DNA from: Streptomyces sp. A 4/2
Lineage (GTDB): Bacteria > Actinomycetota > Actinomycetes > Streptomycetales > Streptomycetaceae
NCBI RefSeq assembly: GCF_940670765.1
Contig: NZ_CALNVW010000046.1
Coordinates: 62,001 to 126,000, forward strand
Length of the DNA: 64,000 bases
Direction of reading: 5' to 3'
The notes beneath the pieces are model-generated. The model was given only the letters and a program-made list of their open reading frames with translations, ran no database searches and was not told the origin of the DNA. Below are positions 2,127 through 42,336 of this stretch, in pieces; the stretch's first letter is position 1; each line of letters opens with the position of its first letter. Position numbers and translations under genes: made by a program.

Positions 2127-2666
2127 ATGGATGACCCCAGCGCGAACGCCGAGGGCCGCTACCGCGTCAACCGGCCCTCGGGGGCCTCCGGGCCCAGGTC
2201 GGGCGCCGCCGTGGAGGCGGGCATTCTGCTCACCAGGGCAATGCTGACCAAGGAGCGCATGAGCCCTCTGCTCCCCCTGCTGACCCGAGACGAGCTTTAC
2301 GAACTCGGCAGCTGGCTGCGGGACGCGGCGGGCAGCCGGGTGGAGCAGGAGCTGCTCCAGGTGTTGCGCGCCATGTGCGCCCGCTGCCCTGGCCAGGCCG
2401 GCGGCACGGCGGCCAGCGTCGAGTTCGTAACCAGCTCGGACGACCCCGAGGGCGTGTGCTGGGACGAGGAGACGCTCTGGCTCCAGGCAGTAGACGGCCA
2501 GGAATGGCAGTACGAGGCCCCGGAACAGCCCGACGACTCGGCCACCGAGCTGGACGACAGGTTCCGGAACCTCCTCATGCTCTACGCCCGCCTTGACCGG
2601 CCGAAGCACAACTCGAACCTGACCGTGAACCTCTCCACCGGCACCTTCGAGGTCACGCCCCCGTAG
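2127..2666 (+). CDS. Hypothetical protein
   Basis: A 179-residue protein. The ATG at 2127 follows GGAAGAAG. Residues 30-95 look helical (LLTRDELYELGSWLRDAAG); the remainder is acidic with several aromatic residues and ends in a short beta-like tail (NLTVNLSTGTFEVTPP). No recognised domain. It is bracketed by two strong hairpins, so it may be expressed as a separate unit or by read-through. Confidence 0.65.
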   Translation: MDDPSANAEGRYRVNRPSGASGPRSGAAVEAGILLTRAMLTKERMSPLLPLLTRDELYELGSWLRDAAGSRVEQELLQVLRAMCARCPGQAGGTAASVEFVTSSDDPEGVCWDEETLWLQAVDGQEWQYEAPEQPDDSATELDDRFRNLLMLYARLDRPKHNSNLTVNLSTGTFEVTPP

Positions 2667-2728
2667 CAGGCGCAGAGGCGGCCTTCCCACCTGTGCGACG
2701 CAGAGGGCCGCGAGCCCGTCACCTTCGA

Positions 2729-2767
2729 GCGCCCGGCGCACCAGCACCCGGCTGGTGCGCCGGGCGC
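2729..2767 (+). terminator. Hairpin terminator
   Basis: Perfect 17-bp inverted repeat (2729-2745 with 2751-2767) and a 5-nt loop ACCCG, between the genes at 2127 and 2842. Confidence 0.8.
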
Positions 2768-2841
2768 CGGCAGAGCACTCAATCCCATACCGCCGCGCCG
2801 GCCGAGCCGCGCAGGGCGCCCTCACACGATCGGAACTCAGC

Positions 2842-3129
2842 ATGACCGCACAAGTGGTGGTCTTCATCGCCTCCAAGAACTCGAACACCACCCACCGGCG
2901 GGTGCTCTGGCGGACGAGTGAAGCCGACGCACGCAAGATCTGCTCCGATGAGCGCACCTCGGGCCGGAACCACATGCTCTGCTGGACCGCGCACTCCATC
3001 GACGATCCGGAGGTCAACCGCTACGTGCGCGACAACGGCGCGTACGCGCAGGTGCTGGCCGAGCACGACGTCACGATCCTCCGCTCGTTCGGAGCGCGCC
3101 GGAGGCCGGATCGGCGGCTGGCAGCATGA
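2842..3129 (+). CDS. Hypothetical small protein
   Basis: A 95-residue protein starting MTAQVVVFIASKNSNTTHRR. It has a beta-strand start, a conserved-looking MLCWTAHSIDDPEVNRYVRDNG stretch near residue 50, and a basic C-terminus (RRRPDRR). The stop overlaps the next ATG (ATGA at 3126), so the two genes are translationally coupled. Function unknown. Confidence 0.6.
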   Translation: MTAQVVVFIASKNSNTTHRRVLWRTSEADARKICSDERTSGRNHMLCWTAHSIDDPEVNRYVRDNGAYAQVLAEHDVTILRSFGARRRPDRRLAA

Positions 3130-3690: not shown

Positions 3691-3820
3691 TTGAGTGTCG
3701 CCGTTCGATGCGGCCGAACCCCGTGCCTGGCATCCACCTCGCGTCCCGCGACGGCAGCCGGGCAGCACCGCCCCGACGACGGAACGGTCGTCAGCCACCA
3801 CCGGCAAGAAGGACACGAAC

Positions 3821-5890
3821 GTGCCGAACACCTTGGCTCCCATCACCGACGAGGACGCCTACCTCCGCGCCCTGAACCAGGCCCGGAGCGCTGCGGCCGC
3901 GTACCACGGCGGCGGTGACTCGCAGATGGACGACGCGGCCTACGACCGCCTCATCGACGCCATCACCGCCTACGAGCAGAAGCATCCGGACCAGCGCGCG
4001 GCCGACTCGCCCACCACCCTGGTCGCCGCCGGGGCACTGCCCGAAGGATCGGTCGTACACGCAACCCCCATGCTCTCGCTCGACAACGTCTTCGACGCCG
4101 AGGAGCTGGCCCGCTGGGCACAGTCCCTGGGCAAGCGCCTGGGCGGCGTGCCGCGCGGGTTCCACGCGGGTCCGAAGATCGACGGGCTGGCGGTCGCGGC
4201 GCACTACCGCGAGGGCAGGCTCGTCCAGCTCGTCACCCGGGGTACCGGCACCACCGGGGAGGACGTCTCGCACGCCATCGGCACCATCGACGGCCTGCCG
4301 GTCGAGCTGGACACGCCGGTCTCGGTCGAGGTCCGGGGCGAGGTGGTCCTGCTCCAGTCCCGATTCGAGGAGGCGAACCGAATCCGCGTCGCCCACGGAG
4401 AGGACCCCTTCTCCAACCCCCGCAACGCAGCCTCGGGCTCGCTCCGCGCGACCGGCCGGGGCTACACCATCCCCCTCAGCTTCTACGGATACGGGCTTCT
4501 GTCCGCGGCCAACGGCGAGACGGGCCGGCTGATCCGCGAGGAGATGACCCACACCGAGCTGATGAAGGCCCTGGGCAGCCTCGGGGTCCAGACCGTGGAC
4601 GACACCCCGGTCGGCACGCTGACCTCTCCGCTCATCAAGGACATCCAGGCGTACGTCGGGCGGGTCGCCACGCAGCGAGCAGACCTGCCGGTCGGGATCG
4701 ACGGCATCGTCATCAAGGCCGACCACCCGCAGGACCAGGCCGTCGCAGGCTCCGGCTCGCGCGCGCCCCGATGGGCGATCGCGTACAAGTTGCCTTCGCT
4801 GGAGGTGATTTCGACGCTCGCCGCCGTCACGTGGACGACCGGGCGCACGGGCAACATCGCTCCGCGTGGCGAGGTCCTGCCTGTCGAGATCGAGGGCGTG
4901 ACGGTGCAGTTCGCGACCCTCCACAATCCCGGCATGATCGCCCGGTTGGGGCTGCGCATCGGTGACCGCGTCGTAGTCCGCAGGGCCGGCGACGTGATCC
5001 CGCAGATCCTCGCTCCCGTGACATCGGCGCGCACCGGCCAGGAGAAGCCGATCGAGCTGCCCACCGTGTGCCCGGGCTGTGGGGGCGAGATCGACATGAG
5101 TCAGGAGCGTTGGAGGTGCCTGAAGGGCCGCGCGTGCAACCTCCCGGCGTCCATCACCTACGCCGTGCAGCGCGACGTCCTCGACATCCAGGGCATCGGA
5201 CCGAAGATCGTCGCGCAGCTGGTCGCGCAGGAGGCGGTGCAGGATGTAGCTGACCTGTTCACCCTCACCCTCGGGCAGCTCACCGAAGCGACCGGCAGCG
5301 AGAAGACCGCCACCAAGATCCTGGACCGCCTCGCCGCAGCGAAGCAGCAGTCCCTCGCCCGAGTGCTCTGCGCCCTGGGGGTCCGAGGAACCGGGCGCAG
5401 CATGTCCCGCCGGATCGCCGACTTCTTCTTCTCCATGTCCGCCATCCAGGCGGCGTCGGCCGCCGAGCTGCGCCAGGTCGAGGGGATCGGTGCGGAGAAG
5501 TCGGCCTGGGTGATCGCCGAACTGGCGGAACTGGAGCCCGTGATCGCGAAGCTCGCGGCGGCGGGCGTCAACCTCGTCGAGCCTCAGAAGAGCGCCCCGG
5601 CGGCCGACACCTCCGGCTCCGGCCAGGGCGCAGGTGCGGCGCTGCCGCTGGCCGAGATGACGGTCGTGGCGACAGGGACGATGACCGGCCGCCTCGAACG
5701 GCTCTCGCGCAACGACATTCACGAGCTGATCGAGAAGGCGGGAGGCCGGTCCGGCTCCAGCGTCTCGAAGAACACCAGCCTCGTCGTCGCCGGAGACAAG
5801 GCCGGTTCGAAGAGGACGAAGGCAGAGCAGTTGGGAGTGCGAGTCATCGGTCCGGACGAGTTCGCGCAGATGGTCAGCGCTTACCTGTGA
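3821..5890 (+). CDS. ligA: NAD-dependent DNA ligase
   Basis: A 689-residue, apparently complete LigA, which seals nicks in duplex DNA using NAD+. Order of domains: N-terminal Ia domain binding NMN (residues 1-70, with DDAAYDRLIDAI), adenylation domain with the nucleotidyl-lysine motif KIDG near residue 119, OB fold, a four-Cys zinc finger (CPGC near 416, later RCLKGRAC), helix-hairpin-helix repeats around 440-590, and a C-terminal BRCT domain (about 605-689). The GTG at 3821 follows AAGAAGGACACG; the frame extends upstream, but the family N-terminus fits 3821. A host chromosome already has LigA, so this is an accessory copy. It is driven by shared promoter P2 and followed by a hairpin. It may seal the element's DNA after transfer or during replication. 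Confidence 0.95.
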   Translation: MPNTLAPITDEDAYLRALNQARSAAAAYHGGGDSQMDDAAYDRLIDAITAYEQKHPDQRAADSPTTLVAAGALPEGSVVHATPMLSLDNVFDAEELARWAQSLGKRLGGVPRGFHAGPKIDGLAVAAHYREGRLVQLVTRGTGTTGEDVSHAIGTIDGLPVELDTPVSVEVRGEVVLLQSRFEEANRIRVAHGEDPFSNPRNAASGSLRATGRGYTIPLSFYGYGLLSAANGETGRLIREEMTHTELMKALGSLGVQTVDDTPVGTLTSPLIKDIQAYVGRVATQRADLPVGIDGIVIKADHPQDQAVAGSGSRAPRWAIAYKLPSLEVISTLAAVTWTTGRTGNIAPRGEVLPVEIEGVTVQFATLHNPGMIARLGLRIGDRVVVRRAGDVIPQILAPVTSARTGQEKPIELPTVCPGCGGEIDMSQERWRCLKGRACNLPASITYAVQRDVLDIQGIGPKIVAQLVAQEAVQDVADLFTLTLGQLTEATGSEKTATKILDRLAAAKQQSLARVLCALGVRGTGRSMSRRIADFFFSMSAIQAASAAELRQVEGIGAEKSAWVIAELAELEPVIAKLAAAGVNLVEPQKSAPAADTSGSGQGAGAALPLAEMTVVATGTMTGRLERLSRNDIHELIEKAGGRSGSSVSKNTSLVVAGDKAGSKRTKAEQLGVRVIGPDEFAQMVSAYL

Positions 5891-16382: not shown

Positions 16383-17237
16383 ATGGCCGTCATCGCCTTC
16401 GCCGGCGCCAGCGGCGGCCCCGGAGTGACCGCGACCGCCCTCGCGGCGCTGCTCACCTGGCCGCTCCCGCAGGGACGCCGCGCCATCCTGGCCGAGTGCG
16501 ACCCGGACGGCGGCTCGATCGCCGCGGGCTATCTCGAGTCGCGGATCCTGGGCGACTACGGCCTGCACAACCTGGAGGTCGCCCACCGCCGCCGCCAGCT
16601 CGACCAGGAGTTCTGGTACCAGCTGATCGACCTGTCCGACAAGGACACCCAGGACCGTCTGCTGCTGCCCGGCCTGACCAACCCCGCCCAGGCCGCCGGC
16701 CTCAGCCAGGTCTGGCAGCGCCTCGGCCTGCTCTTCGAGCAGCTGCAGACCCAGGACCCCGGCTACGACGTCCTGGTGGACCTCGGCCGCTCGGGGGCCA
16801 CCGGCACGGCCAGCGCCCTGGCCAGGTCCGCGGACATCGTCGCCGTCGTCGTACGCCGTACCCTGCGCTCGGCCAACGCCGCCAAGCCGCGGGTCGAGGC
16901 GCTGCGCGCCGCACTCGAGGTCCGCGGCCGCGACAGCAGCCGGCTCGGCCTGGTGGTGATCGACGACGGGGACTTCCGTCCGCGGGACATCTCCGAGCAG
17001 CTCCAACTGCCCATCTTCGCCACCCTCCCCCACGACCCGAGGGCCGCGCAGGTCCTCTCCCACGGCGGCGACGGCGGCCGGTACTTCGGCCGCTCCGCCC
17101 TGTTGCGCGAAGCGCGCGCCATGTCCGAACAACTGCGCGGCCTCGCCGTCCAGGAGCAGCAGAGGCTCCTCGCGCCGGCGGCGCGTCCGCAGACCGTCCT
17201 CGACCGAATGAAGGGAGCTGTCAATGCAGCGCGGTAA
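16383..17237 (+). CDS. CpaE/MinD-like P-loop protein of Tad locus
   Basis: A 284-residue ParA/MinD superfamily protein. The Walker A region is GASGGPGVTA: the usual invariant Lys (GKT/GKS) is absent, so ATP binding may be altered or lost. The DPDGGS segment (~39-44) and LVDLGRSGATG (~135) mark the A' and Walker B regions. CpaE localises pilus assembly to a cell pole in other bacteria. Overlaps the next gene by 14 bp. Confidence 0.75.
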   Translation: MAVIAFAGASGGPGVTATALAALLTWPLPQGRRAILAECDPDGGSIAAGYLESRILGDYGLHNLEVAHRRRQLDQEFWYQLIDLSDKDTQDRLLLPGLTNPAQAAGLSQVWQRLGLLFEQLQTQDPGYDVLVDLGRSGATGTASALARSADIVAVVVRRTLRSANAAKPRVEALRAALEVRGRDSSRLGLVVIDDGDFRPRDISEQLQLPIFATLPHDPRAAQVLSHGGDGGRYFGRSALLREARAMSEQLRGLAVQEQQRLLAPAARPQTVLDRMKGAVNAAR

Positions 17238-18765
17238 GCCCCTGTACGCGCCGGGCCAGGCCTCGTACCTGCCCCAGCAGGTCCCCGTCGCGGGATTCCC
17301 CGTCGTGCCCGGCCCGGTGGCCCCGGCCCCGGTGACGGCGCAGACGCCGGCCGGGGACGGCCGCGTGGTCTCCCGCAAGTCCCTGTGGGACTGGGAGACC
17401 GTCAACAGCCTGCGCGAGGAGCTCAGCCGCCAGATGGCGCCCGAGTTCCAGGCGTACAGGGAGAGCAACAAGCGGGACATGCCCGCCGACGACTCCGAGC
17501 AGCGCGGCTGGGAGCTCATCAACGAGCTCGTCGCCCGCTGGGCTGCGGACTTCGCCGCGGCCCGGCAGATCTCGCCGGCCGAGTCGGACGAGACCACCCT
17601 CGCGCAGGCGGTGTTCGACGCCCAGTTCGCCCACGGCCGCCTCCAGCCTCACCTGGACGACCCGACGGTCGAGAACATCCTGATCAACGGGTGCGACGAC
17701 GTGTGGATCGACTACACCGACCGCCCCCGGCAGAAGGTCGACCCCGTCGCGGAGAGCGACGAGGAACTCGTCGAGTTCCTCCAGATGCTCGCCCGCCGTC
17801 ACGGCGCCGGCGAGCGGAGCCTGTCCAAGGCCTCGCCGACCCTGGCCCTGCGGCTGTCGGACACCTCGCGTCTGCAGGCGATGACCGAGTCCACCCCACG
17901 CCCGTACGTGACCATCCGAAAGCAGCGGATCCGCTCCGTCACGCTGGAGGACCTGGTCGAGTACGGCACCATCGACGCCGGGATGATGCACTTCCTCAAG
18001 GCCGCCATGGCCGCGGAGAAGAACATCATGATCTCGGGCACCCAGGGCGTCGGCAAGACCACGATGATCATCGCGCTGGCCCGCGAGATCGACCCCCAGG
18101 AACGCGTGGGAACGCTCGAGACCGAGTACGAGCTCTTCCTCCACGAGGTCGGGCACCTCAAGCAGGTCGTCCCGATGGAGGCCCGCGAAGGCAACGGCGA
18201 GAGGGTCGACGGCCGCGAGGTCGGCGAGATCGAGATCGCGGACCTCATCGCCCCCTCCCTGCGCATGATGCTTCGCCGCATGATCGTCGGAGAGGTCCGC
18301 TCCCGAGAGATCGTCCCCATGCTCCAGGCGATGTCCGCCGGTGAGGGCGGGTCGCTCTGCACCATCCACAGCCGCAAGGCCGAGGGCGTCTTCGCGCGCA
18401 TCGCCCAGCTGTGCATCCAGCACGGCGACGGGATGACCCAGGAGCTGGCCTACCTGATCGCCGGCGCCGCGCTGGACTTCGTCGTCCACGTCAAGATGAT
18501 CGACGAGACCCGCCTCGGCGGTAAGAAGGTCCGCTTCGTCGAGCAGATCCTGGAGGTCACCGGCGAGGCCAGCGAAACCGGCCTTCCCGCCACCAACAAG
18601 ATCTACGCGCCGCGCCCCGGGCTCGACCCCCGCGCCGTGCCGACCGGCGTCAACCCGTCCTGCCTGGACGACCTGGTGCGCGCCGGTTTCAACCCGGAGT
18701 GGCTGCGCAACGAGAACGGCAACTGGGGCGGCCCGCTGGAGCTGAAGCGGACGGCGGTGGCCTGA
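17224..18765 (+). CDS. cpaF: Pilus assembly ATPase CpaF/TadA
   Basis: A 513-residue secretion ATPase that powers assembly of the pilus at the membrane. Domains: N-terminal region, then AAFxxQFAHGRLQPHLDDPTVENILINGCD, and a RecA-type core with Walker A GTQGVGKTT (~272-280), an Asp-box region (LETEYELFLHE, in place of the usual LExxxEL form), Walker B LRRMIVGEVRS and the His-box HSRKAEGVF. Length and motif order match the T2SS/T4 VirB11-like family. ATG 17224 lies 14 bp inside the previous gene. Confidence 0.9.
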   Translation: MQRGKPLYAPGQASYLPQQVPVAGFPVVPGPVAPAPVTAQTPAGDGRVVSRKSLWDWETVNSLREELSRQMAPEFQAYRESNKRDMPADDSEQRGWELINELVARWAADFAAARQISPAESDETTLAQAVFDAQFAHGRLQPHLDDPTVENILINGCDDVWIDYTDRPRQKVDPVAESDEELVEFLQMLARRHGAGERSLSKASPTLALRLSDTSRLQAMTESTPRPYVTIRKQRIRSVTLEDLVEYGTIDAGMMHFLKAAMAAEKNIMISGTQGVGKTTMIIALAREIDPQERVGTLETEYELFLHEVGHLKQVVPMEAREGNGERVDGREVGEIEIADLIAPSLRMMLRRMIVGEVRSREIVPMLQAMSAGEGGSLCTIHSRKAEGVFARIAQLCIQHGDGMTQELAYLIAGAALDFVVHVKMIDETRLGGKKVRFVEQILEVTGEASETGLPATNKIYAPRPGLDPRAVPTGVNPSCLDDLVRAGFNPEWLRNENGNWGGPLELKRTAVA

Positions 18766-30985: not shown

Positions 30986-31627
30986 ATGATCCAGCAGCCC
31001 ACCCCCGAGACCCGCCCAGCCGCGACGCCTTTCGTCGAACTGATCGGCATCAGCGCCTCGTTCACCCCCCTCGAACTGGAGGGCCTCGTGCGCACCGCAG
31101 CCGAAGCCGTCCACGGCGACCTGGACGATCTCAGCACCCGCCAGCACGAGCTGGCCGCCCGCGCCCACGCGCTGATGGCCGAGGAGGCCGAGCAGGCCGC
31201 CGACGCCGACGCCGACGAGGAGTCACCGGCCGCCGGCTACACCCGGATGCTCGCCCTCCAGGAGTTGCTGCGCGTCGAGGCCGAGGACGCCGCCGAGGAG
31301 TTCACCGCACTCCTGCGCGTCCTGTTCCCCCACGCCGCGCACGTGGTGCTGCAGGTCCGCGGCAACGACACCTTCACCCTGGACCGCGCGGTCACCGCCG
31401 ACGGGACGATCATCCACGACTTCGACGAACCGCTCCCCGCCCTGCCCGAGGACCTGGCCCGCGCCTGGGGCAAGGACCCGCGCTACTCCCTCGACCTGGA
31501 CCACATCGTGGGCGACCTCAAGGCCGCCGGAGTCACCTTCGGCGACCTGCCTGAGACGGCCCGCGACCTCGACGTCGACGACCGGTACGAGTACCTGCCC
31601 TCCATCGACCTGGGAACCGGCGCATGA
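30986..31627 (+). CDS. Hypothetical acidic helical protein
   Basis: A 213-residue very acidic protein (ADADADEESP at ~75), helical, with an alternating DLxxLS/ARxH pattern early. ATG 30986 after CCGGAGAAC. Third gene of the 29899 group. Unknown. Confidence 0.65.
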   Translation: MIQQPTPETRPAATPFVELIGISASFTPLELEGLVRTAAEAVHGDLDDLSTRQHELAARAHALMAEEAEQAADADADEESPAAGYTRMLALQELLRVEAEDAAEEFTALLRVLFPHAAHVVLQVRGNDTFTLDRAVTADGTIIHDFDEPLPALPEDLARAWGKDPRYSLDLDHIVGDLKAAGVTFGDLPETARDLDVDDRYEYLPSIDLGTGA

Positions 31628-35812: not shown

Positions 35813-35841
35813 TTGCTTAAATCCATGAGTTTGCGTATGGT
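35813..35841 (+). promoter_or_regulatory. Shared promoter/operator copy P7 (ATPase/DndC operon)
   Basis: TTGCTT (35813-35818), 17-bp spacer beginning AAATCCATGAGT, TATGGT (35836-35841), 52 bp before the ATPase start. Confidence 0.85.
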
Positions 35842-35892: not shown

Positions 35893-36924
35893 GTGATCAC
35901 CACCATGGCGATAGACGGATTCAAGTCCTTCCAGGACTTCGAACTCGGGTTCCCGGCGGGGCCGCTCACCGTGCTGACCGGCCCCGCCGGCACCGGCAAG
36001 ACCAACCTTCTCGACGCCCTCACCCTGGTCTCCCGGACCCTCACGGACGGCTGGGAGGCGGCCACCGCCTCCAGCTCCCGGCTGGCGCCCGACGCTCTCC
36101 TCCTCCAGAGCGCGCACGAAGGGCAGCACCGGACCGCGCAGACGATGCGGATCACGGTGCAGACCCTGGTTCACGGCGCGAGCGGACCGGTCTCGGTGGA
36201 ACTCGCCGCGCTTCGGCACTCCGACGGCCGCACGGCCGTCCTCGACACAGCCAACAGCGGCGTGCGGATACCCGCACCGGCCGGGACGGCGCAGCGCCTG
36301 ATTCCGCTGGACGGCACGGGCGCGCTGATGGACACCCTCCGGGAGCAGGCCAGGGGCTGGCAGGCGGTCTCCGGCGGCGCGGATGACACCGCTTCGATGC
36401 TGCTGCGGCTCGACGCAGAGTCGGCGACCCGGCTCGACGCCGACCTTGCGGCACTGGTGCACGGCTCCTCCGGCGTCCGGGCCACCCACGGGCGGATCGA
36501 GGTTCGGATGACGCACCGGGGCTGGGTGCCGGTGGACATGATGCCCGCCGGTGCGCTGCGGACCTTGGAGGCCCTGGCCGCCTGGCACACCCGGCCCGGC
36601 GTGCTGGTCCTGGACGGGATCGGGGAAGGGATGCACCCGAAGTCCGCCGCCGAACTCGCCCGGCGGATCGCCCGGCGGCTCGGTACCTCCTCCTCCCCCT
36701 CCCAGCTGATCGCCAGCACGAACACCCTGGACCTGGTCAACATGCTGTCCGACGGTGACCACTCCAGCGTGGTCGTGATCGAGCAGGCCGACCGGGTCGA
36801 CCCCGCACAGCGGACCATCACACCGGTCAGCGTCGCCCTGCCTGTCCGCGAGCCCCGGCCGGAGGAGGCGCCGGGGCACTACATCCGGCCCTCCCGGCTC
36901 GCGCGGATGCTCACCGCCGCATGA
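35893..36924 (+). CDS. AAA/SMC-type ATPase
   Basis: A 343-residue ABC-class ATPase. N-terminal MAIDGFKSFQDFELGFPAGPLTVLTGPAGTGKTN (Walker A ~38-45), a long insertion (~60-190), then MPAGALRTLEALAAWH in place of the usual SxGTLR signature, and Walker B LVLDGIGEGMHP, which matches the GEGLHP form of AAA_15/AAA_21/OLD proteins. No coiled-coil arms, so not a DndD homologue. Directly precedes the DndC-type gene under promoter P7; the two may form one machine, as ATPases do in several defence or DNA-modification systems. GTG 35893 after AGGGAG. Confidence 0.85.
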   Translation: MITTMAIDGFKSFQDFELGFPAGPLTVLTGPAGTGKTNLLDALTLVSRTLTDGWEAATASSSRLAPDALLLQSAHEGQHRTAQTMRITVQTLVHGASGPVSVELAALRHSDGRTAVLDTANSGVRIPAPAGTAQRLIPLDGTGALMDTLREQARGWQAVSGGADDTASMLLRLDAESATRLDADLAALVHGSSGVRATHGRIEVRMTHRGWVPVDMMPAGALRTLEALAAWHTRPGVLVLDGIGEGMHPKSAAELARRIARRLGTSSSPSQLIASTNTLDLVNMLSDGDHSSVVVIEQADRVDPAQRTITPVSVALPVREPRPEEAPGHYIRPSRLARMLTAA

Positions 36925-37030
36925 ACCCCGCCGCCGTGCCGGGCCGCCCCCCGGCACGGCACCCCGGTCCGTTCCTCCCTGGTCGGCGCAGGCCCGGCCA
37001 CCACCATCCCCGCGTACTGAAAGGTCAGCC

Positions 37031-38578
37031 ATGCCCCCGCCCGTCCTGGTGCCCGGCCTCGGCCCCACGCGCCGCAGCCCGTTCGGCGACCTCACCCCCC
37101 ACCGGTACCTGGAGCTGCTCCTGGAGGAGATCCGGGAGTTGTACCTGGCCGACCAGGTGCCCTGGGTCATCGGCTACAGCGGGGGCAAGGACAGCACCCT
37201 GATCGCGGCCCTGACCTGGTGGGCCCTGGCCTCCCTGTCGCCGGAACAGCGGACCAAGACCGTCCACGTGATCTCCACCGACACCCTGGTGGAAAACCCT
37301 CTGGTGGCCGCCTGGGTCGGCCGGTCCCTGGACGCGATGCGCGAGGCCGCCGCCGCCCAGCAACTGCCGATCGAGGTGCACCGCCTCACGCCGGCCGTCG
37401 AGGACTCCTTCTGGATGTGCCTGATCGGACGCGGCTACGCGGCACCCAGGCCGAAGTTCAGGTGGTGCACCGAGCGGCTCAAGATCAAGCCGTCGACCCG
37501 GTTCATCCGCTCCGTCGTCGCCGCCCACGGCGAGGCGATCCTCGTGCTGGGCATCCGCAAGGCCGAGAGCGCGGCACGGGCCAAGTCCATGGCCCGCCAC
37601 GAGAAAGGCCGCGTGCGCGAGCGGCTCTCACCCAACGGCGACCTGCCCAACTCGCTGGTCTACAGCCCGATCGAGGCGCTGACCAACGACGAGGTGTGGA
37701 TCTTGTTGATGCAGTACGACAACCCGTGGGGCCACAGCCACAAGGACCTGCTCGGCCTCTACCAGGGGGCGAGCCCGGACTCCGAGTGCCCACTGGTGGT
37801 CGACACCACCACCCCCTCGTGCGGCGACAGCCGCTTCGGGTGCTGGACGTGCACGATGGTCAGCCAGGACAAGTCCCTCAACGCCATGATCGCCAACGAC
37901 GACGACAACGTCTGGATGCGCCCGCTGCTGGAGCTGCGCAACGCGCTCGACATCGACGACGACCGGCATCTGCGGGACTACCGCAGGTCGAACGGCTCCC
38001 TCATGCTTTTCCACGGCCGGCTGGTGCACGGCCCCTACACCCAGGCCGCCCGGGAGGACTGGCTGCGCCGGCTGCTGCGCGCCCAGCACCAGATCCGCAC
38101 CCGCGGGCCCGAGTACGTGCGCGACCTGGCCCTCATCAGCGTGGAGGAGCTGCACGCGATCCGGCACGAGTGGGTGGTCGTCAAGCACGAGGTCGAGGAC
38201 ATCCTCCCGGCCATCTACCAGGAGGAGACCGGCGACCCGTTCCCCGGCCCGGCCGTCCTGGACGGCGGCTTCGGCTTCGACGCCGACGCCATGGCCGTAC
38301 TGCGGGAGGTCTGCGACGGCGACGAGAGCCAGTACCAGGGAGTCCGCGCGCTGCTCGGGGTGGAGCGCTGCTTCCGCACCGCCGGGCGCCGCTCTGGGTA
38401 CTTCGAGGCCCTGGAGAAGACTGTCACCAAGTACATGTTCACCGACGAGGAGGACGCCCTCCAGTACGCGATCGCCCGCGAGCGGATCCGCTCCGGCCTC
38501 TACGATCAGAGCCGTCCCGAGCCCCCGGGCGCAGGTGGGGACGACGACAACCCGTACGGATCGAAGGAGAGTTCGTGA
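37031..38578 (+). CDS. dndC: DndC-type sulfurtransferase (PAPS-reductase family)
   Basis: A 515-residue protein of the DndC family, which together with DndA, DndD and DndE places sulfur on the DNA backbone. Hallmarks: PP-loop SGGKDST (~49-55), Cys in KFRWCTERLK (~145), and the Fe-S cluster motif SCGDSRFGCWTCTMVSQDKS (~258-280; C-x6-C-x2-C). Length matches DndC, whereas PAPS reductases have about half this size. No dndA, dndB, dndD or dndE is in the window, so it is an orphan, or works with host partners. It is immediately downstream of the AAA ATPase and upstream of the gene at 38575 (GTGA overlap). Confidence 0.9.
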   Translation: MPPPVLVPGLGPTRRSPFGDLTPHRYLELLLEEIRELYLADQVPWVIGYSGGKDSTLIAALTWWALASLSPEQRTKTVHVISTDTLVENPLVAAWVGRSLDAMREAAAAQQLPIEVHRLTPAVEDSFWMCLIGRGYAAPRPKFRWCTERLKIKPSTRFIRSVVAAHGEAILVLGIRKAESAARAKSMARHEKGRVRERLSPNGDLPNSLVYSPIEALTNDEVWILLMQYDNPWGHSHKDLLGLYQGASPDSECPLVVDTTTPSCGDSRFGCWTCTMVSQDKSLNAMIANDDDNVWMRPLLELRNALDIDDDRHLRDYRRSNGSLMLFHGRLVHGPYTQAAREDWLRRLLRAQHQIRTRGPEYVRDLALISVEELHAIRHEWVVVKHEVEDILPAIYQEETGDPFPGPAVLDGGFGFDADAMAVLREVCDGDESQYQGVRALLGVERCFRTAGRRSGYFEALEKTVTKYMFTDEEDALQYAIARERIRSGLYDQSRPEPPGAGGDDDNPYGSKESS

Positions 38579-38967
38579 CCGAGCCGCCGCCGGCCGCACC
38601 GCATCCCGACCACCGGGGCCTGCCCGCGCTGTACATGGCCGAGCTCGCCGCGCACCGGGAGCGCTGGCAGCTGATCGTCGTCGCACCGGGCCCCGAGGTC
38701 GTCGTCGACGCGGTCGCCCTCGGGCCGGCCGACACCCTCGCCGTCTCCGACCCGGACGGCCCCGGGCGCCACCTGATCGCCCCGAGCCCGGAGCCCCAGC
38801 CTGTTCCGCCGCTCACGGACGCGACCAGGCTGCTCCCCACGGTGGGCTACACCGTCGACCCGGCGGCCGGGGCCGACCCGGCCAAGCTCCACGGCTGGAC
38901 CCAGGTCACCCACACCATCTGGACCGCCCCTTGCCACCCGGCCGCGCCCCCGGCGCAGCGACTGTAG
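38575..38967 (+). CDS. Hypothetical protein in DndC operon
   Basis: A 130-residue protein coupled to dndC (GTGA). It has HRERWQLIVVAPGPEVVVDAVALGPADTLAVSDPDG, a small beta-rich region, and a Pro-rich C-terminus. No Dnd family match. It may be a partner of the ATPase/DndC pair by position only. Confidence 0.6.
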   Translation: MTEPPPAAPHPDHRGLPALYMAELAAHRERWQLIVVAPGPEVVVDAVALGPADTLAVSDPDGPGRHLIAPSPEPQPVPPLTDATRLLPTVGYTVDPAAGADPAKLHGWTQVTHTIWTAPCHPAAPPAQRL

Positions 38968-39011
38968 CGACCGGGCCCCCGAAGACCTTCAACGAGCAGG
39001 AGAGCGACGGC

Positions 39012-39626
39012 ATGACGACCACCGAGCCCGACCCGGCCTGCCCGGACTGCGCCGAGCAGCTGGAGTACGACATCGCCAACGCCGTCTTCGTCTGCGGCAA
39101 CGAGCAGTGCGCGTTCCTCGGGATGGAGCAGCCGGTGTGGAGCGCGCTGGAGGAGGCCCGGATGCTGCTTGCCCCGGTCACGGGGCTGCCCCGGCCGACG
39201 CGCCAGGGCCTGCCGGTGCCCTGGGTGACGCCGTGGAGCGCGGCACGGGTGTGGTGGCGCGCCATGGACTCCCGGCTCCTGGCCCGCGCCCACAACGAGT
39301 GGCGCTGTCAGGTGTGCGGAAACCTCCTCCCCGAGCAGGCGTGGGTGCTGGCCACGCCCTCCGGCGTGGTGCTGCAGGCCGCGCTGCACCAGGTGTGCAG
39401 GGATCTGGCGCGGGCGTCCTGCCCGCACCTGTCCGGCCCGGCCACCCGCAGCAGCGCCTACCTCGTCACCCGCGCCGAGCTGACCTGCGACGGCCGGCCC
39501 CTGCTCCAAGCCCCGCCCTCCGACCCGTACTTGCTCCAGCAGTGGGAACTGGCCGCGCACGCGGTACACACCGAGCACGACGACACCCCTTCCGACCCGG
39601 CGGCCCGGGCCGCGGCCCCGGCCTGA
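39012..39626 (+). CDS. Zinc-ribbon protein (paralogue 2 of 3)
   Basis: A 204-residue protein, ATG 39012 after AGGAGAGCG. It carries two zinc-ribbon-like elements: CPDCAEQLEY...VFVCGNEQC (residues ~10-37) and CQVCGNLLPEQAWVL...HQVCRDLARASCPHL. The second is shared with the proteins at 26827 and 62044. Likely a nucleic-acid or protein-binding scaffold. Confidence 0.7.
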   Translation: MTTTEPDPACPDCAEQLEYDIANAVFVCGNEQCAFLGMEQPVWSALEEARMLLAPVTGLPRPTRQGLPVPWVTPWSAARVWWRAMDSRLLARAHNEWRCQVCGNLLPEQAWVLATPSGVVLQAALHQVCRDLARASCPHLSGPATRSSAYLVTRAELTCDGRPLLQAPPSDPYLLQQWELAAHAVHTEHDDTPSDPAARAAAPA

Positions 39627-39664
39627 CGCCCGCCCCGGGCAAACCGACCACGCAGGAGAGCACG

Positions 39665-40332
39665 ATGAACCAACGGTCGCCCGACGCGGCCGGCCGCGAC
39701 CGGCCCGGCCCCGCCGCGGGACCCACCGGACCCGCCCCGGCAGCCGACGGCCTCCTGGTCCCCGCCGAGACCACCTTGATCCGCTACCTCCGGCAGCGCG
39801 CCGCAGAGGTCGACCCGACCTCCGAACCGGTCCTGGACGGGTGGAGGTACCCCTCCCCCTTCCACCTGCTCCTCGACGTTGGCCGGCTCTTCACCCCGGC
39901 CCCGCTCCCGCCCGGAGCCGGCCCGCTCATGGTGACCTTCTGCTACACCAACGCCGCTCAGACGATCGAGGACCAGGAGGACCCGGCCCTGGTGTACGTC
40001 GAGGGGTACGGCAGCTGCACCATCGACAGCGCCGTCCACCACGCCCCCCATGCCTGGGCCACCGGCGGCACCCACGCCATCGACCCGATCTGGCCCGCCG
40101 ATTCCGGCTGCGCCTACCTCGGCATCCCCTTCGCGGACCCCGAGAGGTGGCCGCCCCCCTGTACGGCGACGGAATCCTCCGGAAGCACGCCACCCTGCTG
40201 CCGATCCTGCGCGACGGGCTGCCCGCGGACGCCGTCGCCGACATCGGCCGACCGCTCCCGCACCCGATACGCCCGGCATCCACCCGCCGCGCCGAATCCG
40301 CAGGGCCGCTCAGCCCCGCCCCCTCCGTCTGA
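39665..40332 (+). pseudogene. Frameshifted hypothetical protein (single-base deletion or slippage)
   Basis: The frame from ATG 39665 (after CAGGAGAGC) encodes a plausible protein through GCAYLGIPFADPERWPPP, then turns into low-quality Arg/Ser/Pro sequence. The -1 frame continues sensibly: LYGDGILRKHATLLPILRDGLPADAVADIG and ends at 40332. The switch lies at a run of six C (40154-40159): one more C would restore one continuous frame of about 222 codons. It is therefore a single-base indel (sequencing or real) or a slippery site. Function unknown. Confidence 0.6.
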
Positions 40333-40479
40333 TCCCCGACCCCCGCATCCGCCGTCCGTCCGCCGAGAGCCGAATCCCCGACGCAGGCAACTCCGTTGGA
40401 CACGATGCGAAAGACGGACTGCCCCGACGGGGGCACCCTCACCGCCGAACCCACTTTCGTTCAGGAAGGACCCGAACCG

Positions 40480-42336
40480 TTGTCCCACCTTCTGCCCGCC
40501 GAGCCCCCCGTCCTCTCCGCACGGGCCCCTGCCGTCATGATCGACCGCCCCGGCTCCGTCGACCGCGACGACGCCATCAGTGTCGAGCGCGTCGACGACG
40601 GCTGGCGCCTGACCGTCTACGTCGCCGACGTGGCCTCCGGCATCGCGCCGGGCACTACGGCCGACCAAGACGCGTTCGCGCGCCGCGAGTCGGCGTACGG
40701 GGGCTGGCGCGGAACCCAGAAGATGCTGCCCCAGCCGGTGGAGGCCCAGCTGACCCTGGCCGAGGGGAGGCCGTGCGCCGCGATCGCGATCCGCGTGCAC
40801 GTCCTCCCGGACGGGGAGGTCGGGCGCGTCGACGTCGAGCGCGCGACGGTGAGCGGCCTGGTGGCACTGAGCCACTCCCAGGCCGCCGAGGCGGTCCGCG
40901 ACCGCGCGCATCCCCTCCACCAGGTCCTGCGTGAGGCGGCAGCGGTGAGCGAGGTCCTGCTCGCCCGCCGGCGCCGGCAGGGGGCGCTTGCCCTGTACGA
41001 CCTCCTCAGCGGGTGGGCGACCAGCGAGGACGGCGTCGTGGTCCGGCTCGCCTCCTTCGAGCGGACCATCGGCTACAAGATCGTCCAGGAGTGCATGATC
41101 GCCGCGAACACTGCGCTGGCCTCCTGGGCCGCGGAACGCGACCTCCCGCTGCTGTTCCGCAACCACTCCGCCGCCCGGGTCACCGCCCCGCGCCAGACCC
41201 TGCTGGACGATCTCGACCTGGCCTTCACCGACGGGTCCGCCGCCCGGCTGGAGGCACTGCGCGAACGCACCCTGATGACCCTCAAAGCCGCGGAGTACGC
41301 ACCGTTCATGGGCGGCCACTGGGGCCTGAACCTGCCCGGCTACGTCCACGCCACCTCACCCCTGCGGCGCTACGCCGACCTGGTCGTGCAGCGGGTCATC
41401 TCCAGCCACCTGGACGGCGACGGCTCCCCCTACGGGCAGGACGCCCTACTCGCGATCGCCGAGGCGCTGAACACCGGCGCCCGCCAGGACCGCGACGCCG
41501 AACGGGACTCACGCAAGTCCGCTGCGCACTCCGCCGCCCGCCGCGGTGCCGCGGCGACGGAGGCCGACTACGCCGGCCTGGACGCCCGGGCGTTCCACGC
41601 CCTGCTCAAGCGCGGCTGCAAGGAGGACATCGCCGGTGCGCCCCTGGTCGCCGAGACGGCCCGGCGGGCCGTCGGCGGACTACTCACCTCGCTGGAGCTC
41701 CAGATGGTGCTGCTCGTCGCCGGCGGGCCCGGGTGGGAGGCGGGGCGCAGCGCCTGCCTGAACGCCATCGCGGCCGCGCCCGAGACGGCCGTGTCCATCC
41801 TGTCGGTCCACGCGGAGGTCAACGGCCTGCCGCCGGTCGAGTTCACGGTCCAGACCTTCGGCCAGGCCCCCACCACCGTCTTCGCCGCGCAGGCGTCGTG
41901 GCCGGCGGGCGGGAGCCCCGTTGAAGGAGCCCGGCGGTCCGCGTCGACGAAGAAGGCGGCCCGGCACCAGGCAGCGCTCAGCCTGCTCGCCGTGCTCGCC
42001 GACCTGCCCGACCCCGCCCTCGACCTCGCGCAGCCCGCCCCCGAGACCACGCAGCTCCCGGCATCCGAACTCGGCGCCGAAGCGGTGGAGGGCCGCTCGC
42101 CCATCTCGGTCCTCAACGAGTACCAGCAGATCAAGGTCATCAGCGGCCTGAAGTTCACCATGAGCGCCGCGGGCCCCAGCCACCTTCCGACGTTCACCTG
42201 CACCGCCCAGGCCACCCGCGAGGGCGGAACCGTCCTCGCCTCCGCGTCGGCCTCGACCAAGGCGGGGGCCAAGACGGCAGCGGCGGCCGGTCTGCTGGAG
42301 CGGGTCGACGCAGCGCGGGCCGAGCACGCCGGTTGA
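40480..42336 (+). CDS. RNB exoribonuclease fused to two dsRNA-binding domains
   Basis: A 618-residue RNase II/R-family protein. The RNB active-site motif is SVDRDDAIS (~24-32), followed by VYVADVASGI, RRESAY, MLPQPVEAQLTL, the RNH-type LLFRNHSA, and the signature YVHATSPLRRYADLVVQR (~287-304). There is no cold-shock or S1 domain. Instead the C-terminus has two double-stranded-RNA-binding motifs, ~435-505 (ASTKKAARHQAALSLL) and ~540-607 (SPISVLNEYQ...). RNB enzymes degrade single-stranded RNA 3' to 5'; the added domains imply structured RNA substrates. TTG 40480 after CAGGAAGGACCC is the best start; ATG 40405 is possible. Confidence 0.85.
   Translation: MSHLLPAEPPVLSARAPAVMIDRPGSVDRDDAISVERVDDGWRLTVYVADVASGIAPGTTADQDAFARRESAYGGWRGTQKMLPQPVEAQLTLAEGRPCAAIAIRVHVLPDGEVGRVDVERATVSGLVALSHSQAAEAVRDRAHPLHQVLREAAAVSEVLLARRRRQGALALYDLLSGWATSEDGVVVRLASFERTIGYKIVQECMIAANTALASWAAERDLPLLFRNHSAARVTAPRQTLLDDLDLAFTDGSAARLEALRERTLMTLKAAEYAPFMGGHWGLNLPGYVHATSPLRRYADLVVQRVISSHLDGDGSPYGQDALLAIAEALNTGARQDRDAERDSRKSAAHSAARRGAAATEADYAGLDARAFHALLKRGCKEDIAGAPLVAETARRAVGGLLTSLELQMVLLVAGGPGWEAGRSACLNAIAAAPETAVSILSVHAEVNGLPPVEFTVQTFGQAPTTVFAAQASWPAGGSPVEGARRSASTKKAARHQAALSLLAVLADLPDPALDLAQPAPETTQLPASELGAEAVEGRSPISVLNEYQQIKVISGLKFTMSAAGPSHLPTFTCTAQATREGGTVLASASASTKAGAKTAAAAGLLERVDAARAEHAG

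What the first reader, a model, noticed from the sequence alone, without database searches (positions are those of the whole stretch)
35893..42336. Orphan DndC next to an AAA ATPase, in an operon ending with an RNase-dsRBD fusion
DndC normally needs DndA/D/E; here it is joined to a compact AAA ATPase of the GEGxHP type, two small proteins, a frameshifted gene and an RNA-degrading enzyme, all behind shared promoter P7. This combination is not a known Dnd, Ssp or Pbe layout to me. It may be a distinct sulfur-modification or nucleic-acid-defence module, or a means to interfere with host phosphorothioation.
Basis: partly seen in the sequence, partly recalled or inferred. Interest (0 to 1): 0.82.

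Follow-up and report, generated by a model that had tools for sequence, protein, structure and literature searches.

The report
Stand-alone plasmid DndC sulfurtransferase clade
A gene for the enzyme that swaps oxygen for sulfur in the DNA backbone has left its usual gene set and lives alone on Streptomyces plasmids as one old, well-kept family, so it probably still does a job, one not yet shown.

Summary
DndC is genuine (622.7 bits, cut-off 290.4); the genome holds no DndE match and no DndD over cut-off. The proposed ATPase-DndC module is not supported: the ATPase is cut short in the closest sister plasmid, absent in OfavH-34-F, and not found around solo dndC on other backgrounds. The conserved thing is DndC alone. 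Twenty intact solo copies were found in Streptomycetaceae; the 17 in the tree form one side of a branch with 100/100 support against 30 operon copies. They keep the PP-loop, all Fe-S cysteines, the RPK-type specificity loop (18 of 20) and most DndD-contact residues, with two fixed differences. dndC has the lowest dN/dS of eight genes measured. Eleven of 20 solo copies, not the window's, carry a QxxLF sliding-clamp-like tail; 0 of 34 operon copies do. Best reading: a catalytically intact sulfurtransferase working without resident DndD/E. Main rival: a subunit acting in dnd+ hosts. Activity and substrate are untested.

The parts
35813..35841 (+). Repeated promoter-like element before the operon (TTGCTTAA-N4-ATGANTTNNNNTATGGT; hexamers TTGCTT and TATGGT 17 bp apart)
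   Evidence: 4 matches in window at <=1 mismatch, expected 0.00; PWM score 34.6, best score in 5 mononucleotide shuffles 4.8, though this site is one of the 9 used to build the PWM; present before the operon in L038, L040, L058
35893..36924 (+). ABC/RecF-like ATPase, 343 aa, facultative neighbour; Walker A present, Walker B end reads LDG, ABC-signature position reads MPAGALR
   Evidence: AAA_21 44.8 bits; alignment; dN/dS 0.46-0.59; cut short in NBC_01216, absent in OfavH-34-F
37031..38578 (+). Solo DndC, PP-loop [4Fe-4S] sulfurtransferase, 515 aa; the conserved part of the finding
   Evidence: TIGR03183 622.7 bits; tree; active-site residues; dN/dS 0.11-0.21
38575..38967 (+). small1, 130 aa, no Pfam family; GTG start overlaps the dndC stop
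   Evidence: conserved in L038, L040, L058, L070/L172; dN/dS 0.43-1.90
39012..39626 (+). small2, 204 aa, with CxxC-type cysteine clusters (zinc-ribbon-like, weak)
   Evidence: Zn_Ribbon_TF E 0.015, below cut-off; next to dndC in the window family and OfavH-34-F, and beside a dndC remnant in H27-H1; also on plasmids with no dndC in the stretches fetched
39665..40332 (+). Gene with a frameshift near 40154 in the window; intact 222-aa homologue in NBC_01216
40396..42336 (+). RNB-domain ribonuclease with C-terminal dsRBD, 646 aa as called (the annotated NBC_01216 homologue starts 84 bp later than the matching frame)
   Evidence: RNB 182.3 bits, dsrm 39.8 bits; co-inheritance with solo dndC

Best explanation
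The dndC at 37031-38578 belongs to a clade of stand-alone DndC proteins carried largely by streptomycete plasmids (shown by sequence). It is catalytically intact by sequence: ATP-pyrophosphatase PP-loop, [4Fe-4S] ligands and an R-P-K specificity loop of the GGCC type (residues shown; activity inferred). The likely mechanism, all inferred: a host cysteine desulfurase (IscS/SufS type) loads sulfur, DndC activates a nucleic-acid phosphate with ATP and transfers sulfur to it, probably on DNA, with DndD and DndE replaced by another way of reaching DNA. In four of the six solo lineages the C-terminal QxxLF peptide suggests that this is the host sliding clamp, at the replication fork; the window lineage and its sister lineage lack the peptide and must use something else. 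The neighbouring ATPase, small genes and RNase are plasmid-specific company behind the plasmid's own promoter type, not parts of a conserved machine.
For: One clade: 17 solo rows against 30 operon rows, 100/100, 100% of 200 bootstrap trees. Twenty intact solo copies without dndA/B/D/E matches around them. Intact motifs: SGGKDST and C146/C253/C264/C271/C274 in 20 of 20, R140-P141 in 20 of 20, K142 in 18 of 20. Purifying selection: dndC has the lowest dN/dS (0.11-0.21 to four relatives) of eight genes measured. Carriers mostly lack the partners: DndE over cut-off in 1 of 12 carrier genomes, one of the 12 holding only a dndC remnant, DndD over cut-off in the same 1 of 12, so a function needing resident DndDE could seldom be exercised. 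Clade-specific changes: A57 to L/I and P137 to A in 20 of 20 solo against 0 of 34 operon copies; G468 to Y/H/F in 20 of 20, where 94% of operon copies have G. Clamp-like tail in 11 of 20 solo (9 of 20 at the very end) and 0 of 34 operon copies; Q-L-x-L-F is the consensus at C-termini of clamp-binding transposases (PMC4549789, passages). The model resembles [4Fe-4S] PP-loop sulfurtransferases NcsA and TtuA, weakly.
Against: In S. lividans dndA, dndC, dndD and dndE are each needed for the Dnd phenotype (PMC2653506, passages), so DndC acting without DndD/E has no precedent known to me. DndD-contact residues named in PMC12193691 are kept (L 19 of 20, E 16 of 20, R 20 of 20), which fits continued binding to DndD. 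The window's own DndC lacks the clamp-like tail. The predicted DndD-binding stretch is not clearly relaxed (mean identity 0.53 among 11 solo, 0.59 among 11 operon representatives). Plasmids move, so partner-free present hosts need not be the hosts that matter. No biochemical evidence at all.
Confidence: 0.43

Rival explanations
1. Spare or interfering subunit: the plasmid's DndC plugs into DndD-DndE of a dnd+ host and either raises phosphorothioation of the plasmid or, through its altered loop, blocks it, so that the plasmid avoids restriction that depends on phosphorothioates (such as ScoMcrA) or on their absence.
For: DndD-contact residues and the GGCC-type R-P-K loop are mostly kept; the fixed P137A change sits in the specificity loop; G069 carries two solo dndC copies plus a full dnd operon; in a published assay changing the loop's three core residues abolished modification (PMC12193691, Results read). 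In the pZL1-like plasmids with a MobF-type relaxase dndC lies about 3 kb from the relaxase gene.
Against: Only 1 of 12 carrier genomes has DndE, about as rare as operon-type dndC is in the family draw (15 of 297), so carriers are not enriched for partners, yet dndC is the most constrained gene measured. Catalytic residues are intact, which a pure decoy would not need. The three core loop residues are R-P-K as in S. lividans in 18 of 20.
Confidence: 0.32
2. Different substrate: the solo DndC sulfurates RNA or single-stranded DNA, and in the window's lineage the RNB-dsRBD enzyme belongs to the same RNA-directed function.
For: Nearest solved folds are tRNA thiolases NcsA and TtuA. Close RNB relatives were found only where a dndC of this kind is present: 6 of 12 carriers; 3 of 170 family genomes at E 1e-100, all three carriers; 5 plasmid records, four with a dndC on the same record and the fifth in a strain with one on another plasmid, of which three were opened and seen to be solo.
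Against: The tested carriers of three other lineages (G387, G258, G159, G163) and also G426 and G573 have no RNB relative; genomes of the D/I lineage were not tested. The DNA-recognition loop is kept. The fold match is weak (TM 0.25 by query length) and reflects the common PP-loop fold.
Confidence: 0.12
3. First reader's module: the ATPase is a compact replacement for DndD and works with DndC.
For: Adjacent, same strand, one promoter; ABC-type head as in DndD; full length in three members.
Against: Cut short in NBC_01216 while DndC is 96% identical; absent in OfavH-34-F with DndC 87% identical; not found around other solo copies; Walker B and signature positions depart from the usual; dN/dS 0.46-0.59; relatives on three other plasmids have no dndC in the stretches fetched.
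Confidence: 0.05
4. Sulfur assimilation or redox enzyme (PAPS/APS reductase-like) with no nucleic-acid target.
For: PAPS_reduct Pfam match (28.0 bits, cut-off 22.5).
Against: The DndC model is about 22 times stronger in bits; the specificity loop is kept and the cysteines C253 and C264, said in PMC12193691 to be absent from APS reductase, are invariant.
Confidence: 0.05
5. Decaying relic of a lost dnd operon.
For: One further copy (H27-H1) is a 3' remnant.
Against: Single clade with repeated persistence and dN/dS 0.11-0.21 in the window family.
Confidence: 0.03

Closest known systems
DndC of the DndABCDE DNA phosphorothioation system (TIGR03183; S. lividans type)
   Same: Above the curated cut-off; PP-loop, Fe-S cysteines, R-P-K loop, most DndD-contact residues
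   Different: No dndA/B/D/E nearby, no DndE in the genome; one separate clade; A57L/I, P137A and G468 to Y/H/F
SspD / SspABCD single-strand phosphorothioation
   Same: PP-loop sulfurtransferase; DndD and DndE not used (PMC10853773, passages)
   Different: SspD model only 40.3 bits against 583.5 for DndC; sspB and sspC were not looked for in the genome
Orphan DNA methyltransferases of plasmids and phages (analogy, recalled)
   Same: A modification enzyme carried without its restriction partner
   Different: Here the enzyme also lacks its own modification-complex partners
Clamp-tethered mobile-element proteins such as transposases with a C-terminal QLxLF (PMC4549789, passages)
   Same: QxxLF-type peptide at or within 10 residues of the C-terminus in 11 of 20 solo DndC
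   Different: Not present in the window's DndC; binding untested

Membership tests
DndC (TIGR03183) | Score over curated cut-off | tested here: met
   622.7 against 290.4 bits
DndC (TIGR03183) | SGGKDS PP-loop and four Fe-S cysteines (E. coli 146, 273, 280, 283) plus C262 | tested here: met
   All present in 20 of 20 solo copies; roles as stated in PMC12193691
DndC (TIGR03183) | Specificity loop of a known subtype | tested here: met
   GYAAPRPKFRW in the window, R-P-K as S. lividans (GGCC); P137A fixed in solo copies
DndABCDE system | dndB, dndD, dndE next to dndC | tested here: not met
   No tblastn match in the window or around the other solo copies; all 34 operon copies used here show dndD
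DndABCDE system | DndE and DndD elsewhere in the genome | tested here: not met
   G000: no DndE match; best DndD match 31.3 bits, cut-off 245.85. The same searches found DndE over cut-off in 14 of 20 and DndD over cut-off in 15 of 20 genomes
DndABCDE system | Phosphorothioate in the DNA | not testable with these tools
   Needs LC-MS
SspABCD | SspD is the best family for this protein | tested here: not met
   40.3 bits, DndC 583.5
BREX type 4 | BrxP is the best family for this protein | tested here: not met
   31.8 bits
Sliding-clamp-tethered protein | C-terminal QxxLF-type peptide in the window's DndC | tested here: not met
   The window's DndC ends NPYGSKESS; the motif is in 11 of 20 solo copies, none of them in the window family (5 rows) or the B/J/K lineage (4 rows)
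Sliding-clamp-tethered protein | Binding to DnaN | not testable with these tools
   Needs a binding assay

The most novel reading that the evidence does not exclude
A phosphorothioation enzyme has become independent of its DNA-loading partners: solo DndC marks plasmid (or replicating host) DNA with sulfur without DndD and DndE, using the replication clamp as its tether in most lineages and another route in the window's lineage, so that one protein does what is known to need a complex.
Probability: 0.27. Interest if true: 0.87.

Novelty: new variant of a known kind. Interest (0 to 1): 0.6.

Why it matters
In S. lividans DndC gives no phosphorothioation phenotype without DndD and DndE (PMC2653506, passages). 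A well-conserved solo clade in hosts that mostly lack those partners says either that one protein can do backbone sulfuration by another route, or that plasmids carry a piece that rewires the phosphorothioation of hosts they visit. Either can be tested with one gene in a well-studied Streptomyces pair (S. lividans dnd+, S. coelicolor ScoMcrA+). It also warns that a gene annotated 'DNA phosphorothioation system sulfurtransferase DndC' does not show that a strain has such a system.

Tried and rejected
ATPase as DndD substitute: rejected (truncation, absence, weak constraint). ATPase structure: model mean pLDDT 57.1, not used further. Host dnd operon acting in trans in this strain: no DndE, no DndD over cut-off. 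Phage origin: no relative of this DndC among viral contigs by the one scan made; phage records gave 10 matches, all under 60% identity. Solved DndC structure: none by sequence at E 0.1. Universal partner next to solo dndC: neighbour clustering over 21 solo loci gave none; its first cluster merged other proteins with DndC and was read by hand. tRNA-His at 31055-31150: 96 nt, not found in syntenic loci L040, L058, L071; taken as spurious. Phosphorothioate-cleaving SBD nucleases in carriers: wanted, but the family accession that I recalled is not in the library; not tested. Not done: codon-model tests, rooting of the DndC tree, DndB and Pbe searches in whole genomes; dN/dS is pairwise Nei-Gojobori.

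Literature: ten searches. Seven for DndC with orphan, stand-alone, sliding clamp, plasmid-encoded, linear plasmid, 'DndC homolog'/'without DndD', and phosphorothioation/dndC/plasmid/Streptomyces; three others for pZL1, QLSLF, and leading-region anti-restriction. In what I saw no paper describes solo DndC, but I saw listings only, except for PMC12193691 (outline, abstract, Results, legends) and PMC10853773, PMC8569181, PMC2653506 and PMC4549789 (passages). The library lacks most subscription papers. Clamp-peptide, Walker and signature meanings beyond these passages are recalled.
Full report
What is there. The window lies on a 175,982-base contig of an 8.3-Mb genome. It is syntenic with G065:C1 and G069:C4, and 81% of window 20001-44900 matches a linear 338-kb plasmid of Streptomyces sp. 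NBC_01216 at 91.8%, so it is most likely part of a large linear plasmid (inference). The operon reads ATPase, dndC, small1, small2, a frameshifted gene and an RNB-dsRBD ribonuclease. That these are one transcript is inferred from strand and spacing.

The ATPase. It is an ABC/RecF-like head. In the alignment the Walker B end reads LDG in the three operon copies and in two of five relatives, and EE in the other three; the ABC-signature position reads MPAGALR or a like form in the operon copies and SDGTLR or SGGTLR in those same three (motif meanings recalled). So the departure from the usual motifs marks a subfamily, not the window alone. The ATPase is full length only in the window, G065 and G069-C4. 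In NBC_01216 matches cover only about residues 1-193, in two frames, directly before dndC. In OfavH-34-F a promoter element is kept but a different gene stands before dndC. No match to it is found in the fetched surroundings of the other solo copies. Relatives on three other plasmids have no dndC in the stretches fetched. Genus-wide, 206 of 392 genomes match at E 0.001; of the matches listed most lie in the common N-terminal nucleotide-binding part, and only G000 and the cut-short G318 copy exceed 50% identity (the list is not complete).

A solo clade. DndC was sought in 297 Streptomycetaceae genomes: 20 had it, 6 of them with at least one solo copy and 15 with an operon copy, G069 having both. 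In 394 genomes of the class, 8 had it; apart from the window's, all 7 had dndD beside it. In 382 genomes of the genus, 20 had it; I fetched the surroundings of nine (solo: G517, G617, G387, G426, and a remnant in G573; operon: G494, G540, G596, G381) and knew G000, G273 and, through NBC_01216, G318 already; eight were not examined. Of 31 plasmid records with at least 80% coverage I judged 14: nine solo (H1, H2, H4, H5, H7, H9-H12) and five with the dnd genes present (H14 by tblastn; H15, H17, H20, H24 by annotation). H27 was opened only for its DndC sequence. Two hits below that coverage (H37, H40) also sit beside dnd genes. The total is 20 intact solo copies plus one remnant. About half of the 20 lie on records named as plasmids; the others, the window's included, lie on unnamed or draft contigs. 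In a tree of 17 solo and 30 operon copies the solo group is one side of a branch with 100/100 support and in 100% of 200 bootstrap trees; the root is unknown, and several solo copies are near-duplicates, so about six lineages are independent.

Is it still an enzyme? Against 34 operon copies, 20 of 20 solo copies keep SGGKDST and all five conserved cysteines. The specificity loop is R-P-K in 18, R-P-M and R-P-R in one each. Of the three residues whose joint change broke DndC-DndD binding (PMC12193691), L is kept in 19, E in 16 and R in 20. Fixed or nearly fixed differences are A57 to L/I, P137 to A and G468 to Y/H/F. Pairwise dN/dS is 0.11-0.21 for dndC (four relatives), against 0.46-0.59 for the ATPase and 0.47-0.59 for the RNase (three relatives each), 0.43-1.90 for small1, 0.35-0.75 for small2, 0.26-0.58 for the 5' part of the frameshifted gene and 0.23-0.32 for the two genes upstream. 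The small-gene values rest on few changes.

Partners in the host. Among 12 carrier genomes (one with only the remnant) DndE is over cut-off in one, G069, which has a separate dnd operon, and DndD over cut-off in the same one. One search had no positive genome of its own, but the same model rang in 14 of 20 genomes; the control G273 rang at 829.6 bits. G318 has one full-length DndD-like match under cut-off (117.4 bits).

A tail. Eleven of 20 solo copies carry Q-x-x-L-F or a near form at the C-terminus (9) or within 10 residues of it (2); none of 34 operon copies does, though one operon copy has EELSLF. Of 621 predicted ORFs in 61 loci, some of them overlapping, 22 end in Q..[LIM]F, all in three protein families of solo-dndC loci: DndC itself, an HNH protein about 2 kb downstream and a 143-187-aa protein about 5-6 kb upstream. 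Such C-terminal peptides bind the sliding clamp in transposases (PMC4549789). The window family (5 rows) and the B/J/K lineage (4 rows) lack it, so this cannot explain the window's own copy.

The RNase. A close relative occurs in 6 of 12 carriers and in 3 of 170 family genomes at E 1e-100, all three carriers; on plasmids, in 5 records at E 1e-60, four with a dndC on the same record and the fifth in a strain with one on another plasmid, not opened. It is adjacent in the window family and 10-23 kb away in the others. Since these two lineages are sisters in the tree (81/84), common descent of one plasmid type explains this without a shared function.

Judgement. That this is a solo DndC clade and that the ATPase is not its partner I hold at about 0.9. 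What it does is open: an enzyme independent of resident DndD/E is favoured because constraint is strong where partners are absent; a subunit acting in dnd+ hosts is close behind because the partner-binding residues are mostly kept.

Noticed in passing
window 3662, 6351, 35813 (+), 48557 (-) and weaker sites; L179 6015, 11221, 11890: A 29-bp promoter-like element TTGCTTAA-N4-ATGANTT-N4-TATGGT recurs along the plasmid, one copy just before a LigA-like DNA ligase gene; it looks like a plasmid-wide regulon.
   Followed up: partly
L061 11427-12029, L063, L064, L065, L171, L044 (HNH proteins); L061 3115-3546 and relatives: Two other protein families near solo dndC end in GQMSLF- or GQSALF-like sliding-clamp peptides.
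   Followed up: partly
window 40396-42336; NZ_CP109456 50616-52442; G517:C524; G617:C2: Close relatives of this RNB-dsRBD ribonuclease were found so far only in strains that carry a dndC of this kind.
   Followed up: partly
L173 (G573:C55) 2328-3008: A 3' remnant of solo dndC followed by a small2 homologue.
   Followed up: partly
window 3695-5890 and 17224-18765: NAD-dependent DNA ligase and a T2SSE-type secretion ATPase in the window.
   Followed up: no
L066 17172-18197: A second gene annotated PAPS reductase about 7 kb downstream of solo dndC on the Kitasatospora plasmid.
   Followed up: no
PADLOC model PDLC03333: A model labelled Type II methyltransferase matches this DndC at 303.4 bits over most of its length; the label looks wrong.
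   Followed up: no
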